Below are positions 6,894 through 13,765 of a stretch of DNA of 64,000 bases, piece after piece. Under the pieces are notes generated by a model, which made no database searches, was not told the DNA's origin, and saw only the letters and a program-made list of their open reading frames with translations. The stretch comes from a virus, in IMG/VR virus record IMGVR_UViG_3300023074_000001, positions 62,001 through 126,000 of that record. One strand, given 5' to 3'. The position numbers and the translations under genes are program-made. The first letter of the stretch is position 1; each line of letters opens with the position of its first letter.

Positions 6894-6895
6894 TT

Positions 6896-6935
6896 AACAC
6901 CCCTGAGAACTTGACACTGAGTTCTCAGGGGTGTT
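6896..6935 (+). terminator. Perfect 16-bp hairpin merged with the next promoter
   Basis: AACACCCCTGAGAACT (6896-6911) pairs exactly with 6920-6935. The loop holds the -35 TTGACA and the right arm fills the spacer of the following promoter. Confidence 0.8.
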
Positions 6936-6940
6936 AGTGT
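6911..6940 (+). promoter_or_regulatory. Promoter TTGACA-18-TAGTGT inside a hairpin
   Basis: -35 at 6911-6916, -10 at 6935-6940. Drives 6977 through the leader CATCAGCAAGACAACGAG. Confidence 0.75.
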
Positions 6941-7729: not shown

Positions 7730-7758
7730 TTGACAGTGCTTGGTTGCCCTGGTAGTGT
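7730..7758 (+). promoter_or_regulatory. Promoter TTGACA-17-TAGTGT overlapping an inverted repeat
   Basis: -35 7730-7735, -10 7753-7758. TGCTTGGTTGCCCTG (7737-7751, the spacer) is repeated inverted and perfect at 7768-7782, so the mRNA leader cannot include both arms; as DNA it is a 15-bp operator-like palindrome. Confidence 0.75.
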
Positions 7759-7801
7759 TCTTCACATCAGGGCAACCAAGCACTTAGCGAGAGGCAAGAA
7801 A

Positions 7802-8588: not shown

Positions 8589-8636
8589 TGGTCTCATTGC
8601 AAGACCTAAGAGATTCTGAGAGAAAGAGAATCCATC

Positions 8637-8849
8637 ATGAGTATTGTTGGTCTCGCTCCGCACGGGGGTTGCAACTATGAAGGATGTAAGATATGCTTCC
8701 CTCACTTGCAGGGTAAGCTGCCCGTAACAGATAGAGATTATTACGACCGGGCTATGGAAATCCTTGCTGGTGCCAGACCACGTGATACTGAGTACATCGA
8801 TGCTCTTGCGGTTGCTCGACACTGTGCTAAGCTCTTGCGTAACCGCTGA
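8637..8849 (+). CDS. Small cysteine-containing protein
   Basis: 70 residues, ATG behind the repeated leader. An N-terminal zinc-like group HGGCNYEGCKICFPH (H, C, C, C, H) is followed by a helical half (DYYDRAMEILAG...ALAVARHCAKLL). Zinc binding likely, role unknown. Confidence 0.6.
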   Translation: MSIVGLAPHGGCNYEGCKICFPHLQGKLPVTDRDYYDRAMEILAGARPRDTEYIDALAVARHCAKLLRNR

Positions 8850-8872
8850 TTCTGAGAGAAAGAGAAATCGCT

Positions 8873-9181
8873 ATGGCTATCGTTATCAATCCTCACGCCG
8901 CTAAGTTTGTTGCCGGGCTCAACGCTAAGTGGCCTGCTTACGGCACCTTTACCGTCAACCCTGGTAAGAAGTATGATAAAATCGTTGTAGCGACTAAGCC
9001 TGATGATTCTGTCAGGGTCTATGCTTTCGTTGACCAGGATGGTAACGTCTACAAGGCAAACGGTTGGGCTGCACCCGCTAAGGGTGTTCGGTATGCTAGT
9101 GTGGAAGCTGCACTCCAACACGCGGACAGGTTCGGAGCATTTCTCTACACTGAGTATGTCAAAAAGATTTCTCAGCAGTAA
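8873..9181 (+). CDS. Conserved small actinophage protein
   Basis: 102 residues behind the second leader copy. The pattern KYDKIVV...SVRVYAFVDQDGNVYKANGWAAPAKGVRY is one I recognise from many actinophages (FVD..G..YKA.GW..PAKG.R). Small alpha/beta fold, function unknown. Confidence 0.7.
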   Translation: MAIVINPHAAKFVAGLNAKWPAYGTFTVNPGKKYDKIVVATKPDDSVRVYAFVDQDGNVYKANGWAAPAKGVRYASVEAALQHADRFGAFLYTEYVKKISQQ

Positions 9182-9204
9182 TTCTGAGAGAAAGAGAAAC
9201 CATC

Positions 9205-9363
9205 ATGGCAGTCGGTACGCTTGTGTGCTATAAGACTTACCCTGGCGAGGCAGTTGATCTTTCTATCGGTATCATCAGGGATGTGCTTGACGAAACGTTT
9301 CTGGTAGAGTGGGATGACGGTTACATAACTTGGTATGGTGCAGTCGCGCTGATCAAGGTCTAA
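9205..9363 (+). CDS. Small SH3-like protein
   Basis: 52 residues behind the third leader copy. VGTLVCYKTYP...IGIIRDVLDETFLVEWDDG looks like a short SH3-type barrel. Below usual size limits, but leader and position support it. Confidence 0.6.
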   Translation: MAVGTLVCYKTYPGEAVDLSIGIIRDVLDETFLVEWDDGYITWYGAVALIKV

Positions 9364-9617: not shown

Positions 9618-9629
9618 TAGTGTAGGATC

Positions 9630-9720
9630 ACCCTTATAGCTCACTGGGAGAGCACACAGCCCCGGCTAACAACCGGATTCTGGCTAGTGGTTAGGGCAGG
9701 TTCAAATCCTGCTAGGGGTA
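9630..9720 (+). tRNA. tRNA-like element with extended anticodon arm
   Basis: Acceptor ACCCTTA/TAGGGGT, D-arm GCTC-ACTGGGA-GAGC and T-arm GCAGG-TTCAAAT-CCTGC are all good. The middle 42 bases are abnormal: CCGG-CTAACAA-CCGG gives a loop like CU-AAC-AA (Val), but eight extra bases precede it and AGCC/GGCT could extend the stem around a bulge. 91 bases in all. Decoding ability uncertain. Confidence 0.5.
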
Positions 9721-9830: not shown

Positions 9831-9859
9831 TTGCAAAATCAGTTTTCACCTGTTAGGGT
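9831..9859 (+). promoter_or_regulatory. Promoter TTGCAA-17-TAGGGT for a small RNA
   Basis: -35 9831-9836, -10 9854-9859. The predicted +1 (about 9866) is the first base of the stem of the RNA at 9866-9949. Confidence 0.75.
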
Positions 9860-9865
9860 TACGTA

Positions 9866-9949
9866 GCAAGGCGAGGGATAACCGAAATGTAAGGTTGGTT
9901 ATCTTAAACAACAGCTTAGGCTCTCAACCTAGACCGTGCCTCGCCTTGC
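9866..9949 (+). ncRNA. Structured small RNA, three-way junction
   Basis: 84 bases. Outer stem GCAAGGCGAGG (9866-9876) pairs perfectly with 9939-9949 (11 bp). Inside, GATAACC pairs with GGTTATC (7 bp) and TTAGG with CCTAG around a 7-base loop CTCTCAA. So a three-way junction starts at the predicted +1 of its own promoter. It has no T-arm and is no tRNA. No ORF. The 3' arm overlaps the -35 of the next promoter (9946-9974). I know no family for it. Confidence 0.65.
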
Positions 9950-9974
9950 AAGATCAGCTTTCACCTGGTAGTGT
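9946..9974 (+). promoter_or_regulatory. Promoter TTGCAA-17-TAGTGT overlapping the small RNA end
   Basis: -35 9946-9951 lies in the 3' arm of the RNA stem; -10 9969-9974. Drives 10011. Confidence 0.75.
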
Positions 9975-10010
9975 TCTCCACATCAGCAACGACAAGCGGA
10001 AGGCAACACC

Positions 10011-10412
10011 ATGAAGACTTACGCGGACTATCTCAACACCCTGACGGTCAAGGCTCTGCGCGAGATTGTTTCCCAGTTTGGCTACAAGGGTACCTCTAAG
10101 TTCCTTAAGGCTAAGTTGGTTGAGATTGTTGACATGGAGGCCGGGGTCGCCTACGATGACGCGGTGAGTGAGAACCGTAAGCGCGTCGTGACCAAGATCG
10201 CTGCCGGTGCTTCGCTCAAGCTGGGAGGATTCGACTCCAGCGCATTCACCAATCACGTGCTGCCTATCGAGCGTGTGGAGCGTAAGGTGAACAACTACAT
10301 GCGTCAGAACAACAGCGATAAGCTTACTCCGGCTCAGTGGCGGCGTACCCGCAAGGCGATGCGTAAGGCTGGCATCAAGACCCTCAGTGAGTTGACTCTC
10401 ACCTTCCCCTGA
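10011..10412 (+). CDS. SAP-like small protein, paralogue 2
   Basis: 133 residues, ATG behind GGAAGG. Residues 11-40 (LTVKALREIVSQFGYKGTSK, then LKAKLVEIVD) match the SAP/Rho-N pattern and the same region of the genes at 686 and 13076. The C-terminal KLTPAQWRRTRKAMRKAG is basic. Probably binds DNA or RNA. Confidence 0.65.
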   Translation: MKTYADYLNTLTVKALREIVSQFGYKGTSKFLKAKLVEIVDMEAGVAYDDAVSENRKRVVTKIAAGASLKLGGFDSSAFTNHVLPIERVERKVNNYMRQNNSDKLTPAQWRRTRKAMRKAGIKTLSELTLTFP

Positions 10413-10648: not shown

Positions 10649-10693
10649 ACCACACACCCTCATTTGCCTCACGGTAAAGGTGTGTGGTAGTGT
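10649..10693 (+). promoter_or_regulatory. Hairpin-embedded promoter TTGCCT-18-TAGTGT
   Basis: ACCACACACC (10649-10658) pairs exactly with 10679-10688. The -35 (10664-10669) is in the loop, the right arm is in the spacer, the -10 is 10688-10693. Combines a hairpin after 10631 with the promoter of 10729. Confidence 0.7.
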
Positions 10694-12725: not shown

Positions 12726-12763
12726 GGATGGGGGTTGCAAGATCGGCCCCCATCCACTAGGGT
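12726..12763 (+). promoter_or_regulatory. Hairpin-embedded promoter TTGCAA-17-TAGGGT for a small RNA
   Basis: GGATGGGGG (12726-12734) pairs with CCCCCATCC (12747-12755). The -35 is in the loop (12735-12740), the -10 at 12758-12763. Predicted +1 near 12770, the first base of the RNA below. Confidence 0.75.
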
Positions 12764-12770
12764 TTGTGTT

Positions 12771-12912
12771 GTAAGGCAAGCGGGACGCGGTAGGCGACAC
12801 AAACACCGGTAAGCAGAAGCAAGGCACAGGATGTCTTGGGGATGTAATCGGTGAAGAAAGCCTAGTAGTTCTCGAAAAGCAGATGATCGCTACTTTCCTC
12901 CGCTTGCCTTAC
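12771..12912 (+). ncRNA. Structured small RNA closed by a 13-bp stem
   Basis: 142 bases. GTAAGGCAAGCGG (12771-12783) pairs perfectly with 12900-12912, and begins at the predicted +1 of its own promoter. The interior has no open frame with a ribosome site. The 3' arm contains the -35 (TTGCCT) of the next promoter. A long closing stem at the 5' end recalls 6S-like or regulatory RNAs only in outline; I recognise no family. Confidence 0.65.
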
Positions 12913-12932
12913 CAGACAACCTCTGATAGTGT
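12904..12932 (+). promoter_or_regulatory. Promoter TTGCCT-17-TAGTGT
   Basis: -35 12904-12909 within the stem of the preceding RNA; -10 12927-12932. +1 near 12939 matches the start of the next stem. Confidence 0.7.
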
Positions 12933-12937
12933 TTCTC

Positions 12938-12998
12938 TCAGAATCAGATACCGACGTAACCGCGCAATGCGGGCTAACACAACTGGTGAAGATTCTGA
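12938..12998 (+). ncRNA. Structured small RNA, 61 bases
   Basis: TCAGAATC (12938-12945) pairs exactly with GATTCTGA (12991-12998); inside, CCGC/GCGG (12960-12972) forms a hairpin. It starts at the predicted +1 of its promoter and stops ten bases before the next -35. No ORF. Confidence 0.55.
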
Positions 12999-13075: not shown

Positions 13076-13765
13076 ATGTCGGAAGCCCTGAAGACCTACT
13101 ACAGCCTCAGCGCGAAGCTCCCCCGCACCAACTCGGTTCGTGCTGCCGCCGCCAGCTTGGTCCAGTCTTCCGCCATGGGCACCAACGAGGAGGTCATCCG
13201 CAAGGCGAACGGCTGGCTCCTCCAGGAAATCTTGGAAATGGGCTTGACGACCGATGACGGCTCGACTAGTGTTGACCACAACAGCAACGACAACGCCTCG
13301 GAGGACACCATGTACGCCGACACCCTGAACTCGAAGAACTACACCGTCAAGGCTCTGAAGGAGATCGCTAAGCGGATGGGGCTCAAGCGGTACTCGGCGC
13401 TCCGTAAGGCTGACCTGGCGAACCTGATCGCGGAGAACATCGAGATTCCGGTGATCCTGAGCACCGAGGTTGAGGCTGACATCGTGCCGATCAGCGAGAT
13501 CATGGAGGCGGTCAAGGCTGAGCTTGCCGCTAGCACCCCCGTTAAGGCTCCTCAGATGGCCGCTACCGAGACAGATGCGGATGAGGATGCTCCCCTGACG
13601 GTAGAGGAGATCGTGACCGCCTACACGAACATGAAGCGCACGTGGAACCGTGCAACCGGCAAGCTTGCCCTGAGCCTGATGACCAAGCTGATCAAGATGC
13701 GCACTGAGGTCAAGGCCATGGGGTTCAACCCGGTGGCCGTGGGTATGGGTTACTCGGTAGCGTGA
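13076..13765 (+). CDS. Two-part SAP-like protein, paralogue 3
   Basis: 229 residues from ATG 13076 behind AGGGAG. Residues 1-60 are helical with no known match; residues 79-229 (from MYADTLNSKN) are a full SAP-like paralogue of the genes at 686 and 10011 (VKALKEIAKRMGLKRYSALR, then KADLANLIAE). The codons are far more G/C-rich at third positions than in neighbours, suggesting recent transfer. A complete promoter and ribosome site lie inside the frame at 13244-13309, so the C-terminal part is probably also made alone. Confidence 0.65.
   Translation: MSEALKTYYSLSAKLPRTNSVRAAAASLVQSSAMGTNEEVIRKANGWLLQEILEMGLTTDDGSTSVDHNSNDNASEDTMYADTLNSKNYTVKALKEIAKRMGLKRYSALRKADLANLIAENIEIPVILSTEVEADIVPISEIMEAVKAELAASTPVKAPQMAATETDADEDAPLTVEEIVTAYTNMKRTWNRATGKLALSLMTKLIKMRTEVKAMGFNPVAVGMGYSVA
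13244..13272 (+). promoter_or_regulatory. Internal promoter TTGACG-17-TAGTGT within a gene
   Basis: -35 13244-13249, -10 13267-13272, then CGGAGGACACC before an in-frame ATG at 13310. The leader (CACAACAGCAACGACAACG) is like that of 10011. Probably an old intergenic region turned into coding sequence. Confidence 0.65.
13310..13765 (+). CDS. Nested SAP-like protein from the internal start
   Basis: 151 residues, same frame as the gene at 13076, from ATG 13310 with GGAGG seven bases upstream and its own promoter. Domain layout equals the stand-alone paralogue at 10011, which argues that this was once, or still is, a separate gene. Confidence 0.5.
   Translation: MYADTLNSKNYTVKALKEIAKRMGLKRYSALRKADLANLIAENIEIPVILSTEVEADIVPISEIMEAVKAELAASTPVKAPQMAATETDADEDAPLTVEEIVTAYTNMKRTWNRATGKLALSLMTKLIKMRTEVKAMGFNPVAVGMGYSVA

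What the first reader, a model, noticed from the sequence alone, without database searches (positions are those of the whole stretch)
9831..9974. 84-base three-way-junction RNA with its own promoter
GCAAGGCGAGG pairs with 9939-9949 (11 bp), enclosing two further perfect stems of 7 and 5 bp. The stem starts at the predicted +1 of promoter 9831-9859 and its end overlaps the next promoter. This is the same design as at 12.8-13.0 kb. It is like a tRNA without a T-arm, so a tRNA mimic is possible.
Basis: partly seen in the sequence, partly recalled or inferred. Interest (0 to 1): 0.8.

Follow-up and report, generated by a model that had tools for sequence, protein, structure and literature searches.

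The report
Phage small RNA with clamped ends
An uncultured phage, probably of an actinobacterium, appears to encode an 84-nucleotide structured RNA whose ends are zipped into a stem that starts where its own promoter should begin transcription; the same trick precedes most promoter-led tRNA genes in this phage group but almost none of its protein genes, which suggests a device that protects untranslated RNAs.

Summary
Promoter P1 (9831-9859) is followed at its predicted +1 (9866) by an 84-nt fold. An 11-bp perfect stem (9866-9876/9939-9949) closes one strong and one weaker hairpin (z -4.4). The 3' arm overlaps the -35 of promoter P2. The 12.77 kb twin is real.

The tRNA-mimic reading is not supported: no ARAGORN or Rfam match, no T-arm, no acceptor end.

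Related viral contigs point elsewhere. Stems that start at predicted +1 are strongly enriched (23 at four offsets; about 2.6 expected). They follow 12/20 promoters leading into tRNA genes but 1/44 leading into ORFs. In tRNA units the stem ends 2-7 nt before the tRNA and keeps pairing while its sequence changes.

Best explanation: an untranslated RNA carrying this clade's "+1 clamp", which buries the 5' triphosphate in duplex and so resists decay, as shown for mycobacterial DrrS; the 3' end would be made by trimming, as no terminator was found. Its downstream function is unknown. The RNA has no homologue in any searched set, so its own fold lacks covariation support; a read-through mRNA leader is the main rival.

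Bonus: a covarying RNA motif at 12938-12998, seven copies in four phages.

The parts
9831..9859 (+). Promoter P1 (TTGCAA-N17-TAGGGT) of the RNA
   Evidence: Sequence; one of a set of similar promoters in this genome. Not mapped experimentally.
9866..9949 (+). 84-nt structured non-coding RNA, closed by an 11-bp stem that begins at predicted +1
   Evidence: Fold z -4.4, pair probabilities, class statistics
9866..9876 (+). 5' arm of the clamp stem, GCAAGGCGAGG
   Evidence: Perfect complement of 9939-9949
9877..9903 (+). Hairpin 1 (GATAACC...GGTTATC)
   Evidence: Pair probability 0.81-0.97
9916..9932 (+). Hairpin 2, weaker, 7-nt loop CTCTCAA
   Evidence: Pair probability 0.56-0.81
9939..9949 (+). 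3' arm of the clamp stem, CCTCGCCTTGC, overlapping the -35 of P2
9946..9974 (+). Promoter P2 (TTGCAA-N17-TAGTGT) of the following gene, near copy of P1
   Evidence: family D8, 82% over 38 nt
10011..10412 (+). 133-aa protein gene behind P2, distantly like the Rho_N-domain protein at 13310
12735..12763 (+). Promoter of the twin RNA (TTGCAA-N17-TAGGGT)
12771..12912 (+). Twin: 142-nt structured RNA with a 14-bp stem at +1
12904..12933 (+). Promoter TTGCCT-N18-TAGTGT whose -35 lies in the 3' arm of the twin
12938..12998 (+). Conserved RNA motif M, closed by a stem near +1 of promoter 12904

Best explanation
9866-9949 is an untranslated, structured phage RNA of a '+1-clamp' type. Transcription from P1 is predicted to start on the first base of the closing stem, so the 5' triphosphate is tied into a blunt duplex with the 3' end of the domain. 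This should block RppH-type 5' conversion and 5'-dependent RNase E/J attack, giving a long-lived RNA without translation. No terminator follows, so the transcript would run on past P2 and be trimmed back to the stem. The same clamp heads most promoter-led tRNA units in this clade, where it would protect the precursor until RNase P removes it. Shown here: the fold, the position of stems relative to promoters, the bias to untranslated RNAs, and kept pairing despite sequence change in the tRNA leaders. Inferred: expression, the exact start, stability, 3' trimming. Not known: what the stable RNA binds or regulates; a trans-acting regulatory RNA is my guess.
For: Fold z -4.4 and outer-stem pair probabilities 0.92-1.0. 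Among 138 promoters in nine related contigs, stems scoring 9 or more start at the predicted +1 (offsets 4-7) 23 times against 0.64 per offset elsewhere. Such stems follow 12/20 promoters leading into tRNAs, 1/44 leading into ORFs. In 17 clamped transcripts, own arms pair at 9.0/9 positions, swapped arms at 3.9: pairing is kept while sequence varies. Stand-alone clamped RNAs also occur in G009/G010 and G005. No ORF and no terminator-like site at 9866-10010. Precedent in an actinobacterium: DrrS has a stem starting at its first base, no terminator, 3' trimming and a very long half-life (PMC5360333); 5' structure impedes RppH and RNase E/J (PMC3997798).
Against: No homologue of this RNA was found, so its own fold has no covariation support. 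Start, abundance and 3' end are unmapped. P1's -35 is weak (TTGCAA). A read-through transcript cannot be excluded. 8 of 20 promoters leading into tRNAs have no scored clamp. The contigs are related, so the counts are not independent.
Confidence: 0.5

Rival explanations
1. It is the structured 5' leader of a longer mRNA. P1 transcripts read through P2 into the 10011-10412 gene and carry the clamp as a stabiliser or regulator, while P2 gives a plain mRNA. There is no separate 84-nt RNA.
For: No terminator-like site between 9949 and 10011; P2 and a gene follow at once; in G007 a motif-M RNA lies directly upstream of an ATG.
Against: The gene has its own promoter and ribosome site; promoters leading into ORFs elsewhere lack clamps (1/44); in tRNA units the clamp is on untranslated RNA.
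Confidence: 0.25
2. The paired arms are DNA-level features: a regulator's inverted binding sites at +1 of P1 and at the -35 of P2, or a by-product of promoter duplication.
For: P1 and P2 are near copies 115 nt apart; several other promoters here carry inverted repeats around the -35 (I21 and I22).
Against: Across the clade the arm sequences change while complementarity stays, which favours RNA pairing over a fixed DNA site; the position is locked to predicted +1.
Confidence: 0.13
3. It is a cis-acting antiterminator RNA like HK022 put, which loads onto RNA polymerase at the start of untranslated transcripts and suppresses termination.
For: Structured RNA right at +1 of early and tRNA promoters, where long untranslated transcripts would need protection from Rho; putL lies just downstream of PL and its first paired base is A3 (PMC9378689).
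Against: put is about 70 nt with two tandem stem-loops, whereas this is one closed three-way junction. Clamp interiors share no sequence and in the tRNA leaders range from 5 to 62 nt, which does not suit one specific polymerase-binding fold.
Confidence: 0.07
4. It is a tRNA mimic.
For: Size and a three-way junction; it lies about 145 nt downstream of a tRNA-like gene.
Against: No ARAGORN or Rfam tRNA match, no T-arm, no acceptor overhang or CCA, an 11-bp closing stem instead of 7.
Confidence: 0.03

Closest known systems
DrrS (MTS1338) small RNA of Mycobacterium tuberculosis (PMC5360333)
   Same: About 100-nt actinobacterial RNA; a stem begins on its first base; no intrinsic terminator; structured throughout.
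   Different: DrrS starts with a short 5-bp hairpin, not one long stem joining both ends; its stability and 3' trimming are shown, here they are inferred; no sequence relation claimed.
5'-terminal stem-loops that stabilise bacterial mRNAs (reviewed in PMC3997798)
   Same: Duplex at the 5' end expected to impede RppH and RNase E/J.
   Different: Here used mainly on tRNA precursors and non-coding RNAs, not on mRNAs, across a whole phage clade.
HK022 put RNA (PMC9378689)
   Same: Phage RNA element of 70-85 nt just downstream of an early promoter.
   Different: put has two tandem stem-loops and binds the polymerase zinc-binding domain; this is a closed three-way junction.
Stable RNAs C and D in the phage T4 tRNA cluster (own knowledge, not tested)
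   Same: Small stable phage RNAs of unknown function encoded with tRNAs.
   Different: No sequence comparison made; to my knowledge those come out of the tRNA transcript, not from their own promoter.

Membership tests
tRNA (RF00005) or tRNA mimic | Match to the tRNA model or cloverleaf | tested here: not met
   ARAGORN none at 9866-9949; Rfam none at E up to 10
tRNA (RF00005) or tRNA mimic | T-arm, 7-bp acceptor stem, 3' overhang | tested here: not met
   Predicted fold has two hairpins inside an 11-bp blunt stem
DrrS-like stable small RNA | First transcribed base is the first base of a stem | tested here: inconclusive
   Met for the predicted start (six bases after the -10); start not mapped
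DrrS-like stable small RNA | No intrinsic terminator at the 3' end | tested here: met
   No terminator-like site near 9949-10011
DrrS-like stable small RNA | 3' trimming from a longer precursor and very long half-life | not testable with these tools
   Needs RNA from infected cells
Clade +1-clamp class (defined here) | Stem of 9 bp or more starting 4-7 nt after the -10 | tested here: met
   11 bp at offset 6
Conserved motif M | Match to covariance model R1 | tested here: not met
   No match at 9866-9949 with filters off
HK022 put RNA | Two tandem stem-loops close to the transcription start | tested here: not met
   Predicted fold is a closed three-way junction against the published topology
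HK022 put RNA | Suppresses pausing and termination in cis | not testable with these tools
   Needs a transcription assay

The most novel reading that the evidence does not exclude
A phage clade marks its untranslated RNAs (tRNA units and several unrelated small RNAs) with a start-site clamp, a stem that begins on the first transcribed base, and withholds it from mRNAs. The 84-nt, 142-nt and motif-M RNAs are undescribed clamped phage regulatory RNAs.
Probability: 0.35. Interest if true: 0.68.

Novelty: new variant of a known kind. Interest (0 to 1): 0.52.

Why it matters
5' stem-loops that shield RNA are known one gene at a time. Here a phage group seems to apply the device to most promoter-led tRNA units and to stand-alone non-coding RNAs while leaving mRNAs plain, a rule that one infection experiment could test. 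It also gives a handle (promoter plus +1 stem) for finding unannotated phage RNAs; used here, it led to a new covarying RNA motif.

Tried and rejected
tRNA mimic: rejected. Known RNA family: none at E up to 5 or 10. Homologues of the 84-nt RNA by DNA pattern, protein anchors and blastn: none, so no direct covariation test was possible. Member of motif M: rejected. General feature of actinophages with many tRNAs: not seen in about 100 kb of Streptomyces phage StarPlatinum (0 of 123 promoters, at a slightly stricter stem cut-off of 10). Wider pattern for motif M in viral contigs: eight further hits look like chance in unrelated sequence; none in the genome collection. Antisense lead: loop CUCUCA is complementary to UGAGAG in the leaders of genes 8637, 8873 and 9205, but the enrichment (12 against 2.8) is inflated because my start-site filter itself selected GAGA/AGAG, so it is not evidence. 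FtsK-like and DUF7178 anchors added only one new relative. Papers on a phage tRNA leader clamp: none found in the held library.

Full report
The window is 64 kb of a 135,654-base virus record of 44% G+C. The closest terminase in a named phage is that of Microbacterium phage Magritte at 48% identity. Ten uncultured contigs have terminases 82-90% identical, and an eleventh was reached through a second gene. I fetched most of these (nearly) whole so that the finding could be judged against relatives.

The observation. P1 (9831-9859) is TTGCAA-N17-TAGGGT. Six bases lie between its -10 and 9866, where GCAAGGCGAGG starts; this pairs perfectly with 9939-9949. The enclosed 84 nt fold at -32.5 kcal/mol, z -4.4 against dinucleotide shuffles. 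Outer-stem pairs have probabilities of 0.92-1.0 and survive in longer contexts; hairpin 1 is firm (0.81-0.97), hairpin 2 moderate (0.56-0.81). The 3' arm overlaps the -35 of P2, a near copy of P1 115 nt downstream. The twin at 12771-12912 has a 14-bp stem starting 7 bases after its -10, z about -4, and its 3' arm also contains the next -35. A perfect stem of 11 bp or more at a random anchor was seen in 78 of 40,000 trials.

Is it a tRNA mimic? ARAGORN and Rfam find nothing at 9866-9949. The real tRNA-like gene nearby is 9630-9720 (RF00005, 39 bits), itself odd in its anticodon arm. I do not support the mimic reading.

What the relatives show. I scanned nine contigs for sigma-A-like promoters and asked where long stems start relative to the -10. 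For 138 promoters, stems scoring 9 or more start at offsets 4-7, the expected +1, 23 times, against 0.64 per offset elsewhere. Most of these lead straight into tRNA genes: TTGACA-N17-TGTAAGGT, AGTA, then a stem such as ATGTAAGCAAG...CTTGCTTACAT ending 2-7 nt before the tRNA. Interiors range from 5 to 62 nt in the tRNA leaders and up to 114 nt in the stand-alone RNAs, without a common sequence. In a set of 17 such stems, own arms pair at 9.0 of 9 positions but arms swapped between transcripts at 3.9: the pairing is kept, not the sequence (the stems had been picked for pairing, so the swapped value is the informative one). By what follows the promoter, 12 of 20 promoters leading into tRNAs, 1 of 44 leading into ORFs and 8 of 74 others have such a stem (Fisher 4e-7 for the first two, contigs not independent). 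In the window's early region the two clamped promoters, 9831 and 12735, have no ORF behind them, and none of the promoters leading into ORFs is clamped. Stand-alone clamped RNAs also occur in relatives: G009/G010 (about 110 nt, directly upstream of the next clamped tRNA promoter) and G005. The same scan at a slightly stricter cut-off on Streptomyces phage StarPlatinum gave 0 of 123, so the method does not produce clamps everywhere.

How it most likely works. A stem that starts on the first transcribed base buries the 5' triphosphate in duplex. In E. coli and B. subtilis 5' structure impedes RppH and hence RNase E or J (PMC3997798). In mycobacteria the small RNA DrrS has a stem whose first base is the start site, lacks a terminator, is trimmed from a longer precursor and lives for hours; added 5' nucleotides destabilise it, and the stem raised expression of a reporter threefold (PMC5360333). 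By inference, the phage clamp does this for tRNA precursors and for the 84-nt RNA, in which both ends meet in the clamp. Shown: sequence, fold, position, class statistics. Inferred: transcription from P1, start at 9866, stability, trimming. Unknown: the RNA's target. The main rival is a read-through leader for the 10011-10412 gene.

Limits. No homologue of the 84-nt RNA was found anywhere searched, so its inner hairpins lack covariation support and its closing stem is supported only as a member of the class. P1's -35 is weak. Contig relatedness inflates the class statistics. 8 of 20 promoters leading into tRNAs, among them tRNA-Met units, lack a scored +1 stem. The host is not known; 'actinobacterial' rests on the nearest terminases and the promoter type.

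A second RNA. Next to the twin, 12938-12998 carries a conserved motif (stem at or near +1, ACGUA, hairpin, UAACAAC-type strand, stem) found at seven places in four phages, with 7 of 9 pairs changed on both sides in at least one member and 0/500 shuffles as high. Two members in G005 (53916, 59733) have 13-15-bp closing stems right behind a promoter. It has no match in Rfam, in the prokaryote genome collection by pattern or convincingly in named phages. The 84-nt RNA is not a member.

Noticed in passing
window 12938-12998; G005(-) 46764, 47591, 53916, 59733; G007(-) 8436; L057(-) 12661: Conserved RNA motif M: closing stem, ACGUA, hairpin, UAACAAC-type strand, stem; 7 of 9 pairs covary among seven copies in four phages; no Rfam match. 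Possibly a new phage RNA family.
   Followed up: partly
G000, G005, G007, G009, G010 tRNA genes, e.g. G000:19697, 23821, 32612, 83122(-): Promoter-led tRNA units carry a leader whose stem starts at predicted +1 and ends 2-7 nt before the tRNA.
   Followed up: yes
window 9630-9720: tRNA-like gene (called Val-AAC; RF00005, 39 bits) with good acceptor, D and T arms but an enlarged, bulged anticodon arm; its 5' end lies where a weak promoter (TAGTGT at 9618) would start transcription.
   Followed up: partly
window 6895-6936, 7735-7784, about 10651-10688, 12732-12757: Several promoters carry inverted repeats around the -35 or -10 (17 bp perfect at 6895 and 7735): possible overlapping terminators or operators.
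   Followed up: no
window 8613-8649, 8849-8885, 9181-9217: Three neighbouring genes share the leader ATTCTGAGAGAAAGAGAA before the start codon (D4); loop CUCUCA of the 84-nt RNA is complementary to its UGAGAG, untested.
   Followed up: partly
window 10011-10412 and 13310-13765: The genes behind both RNA cassettes are distantly related small proteins; the second has a Rho_N domain, the first resembles it at 28% identity.
   Followed up: partly
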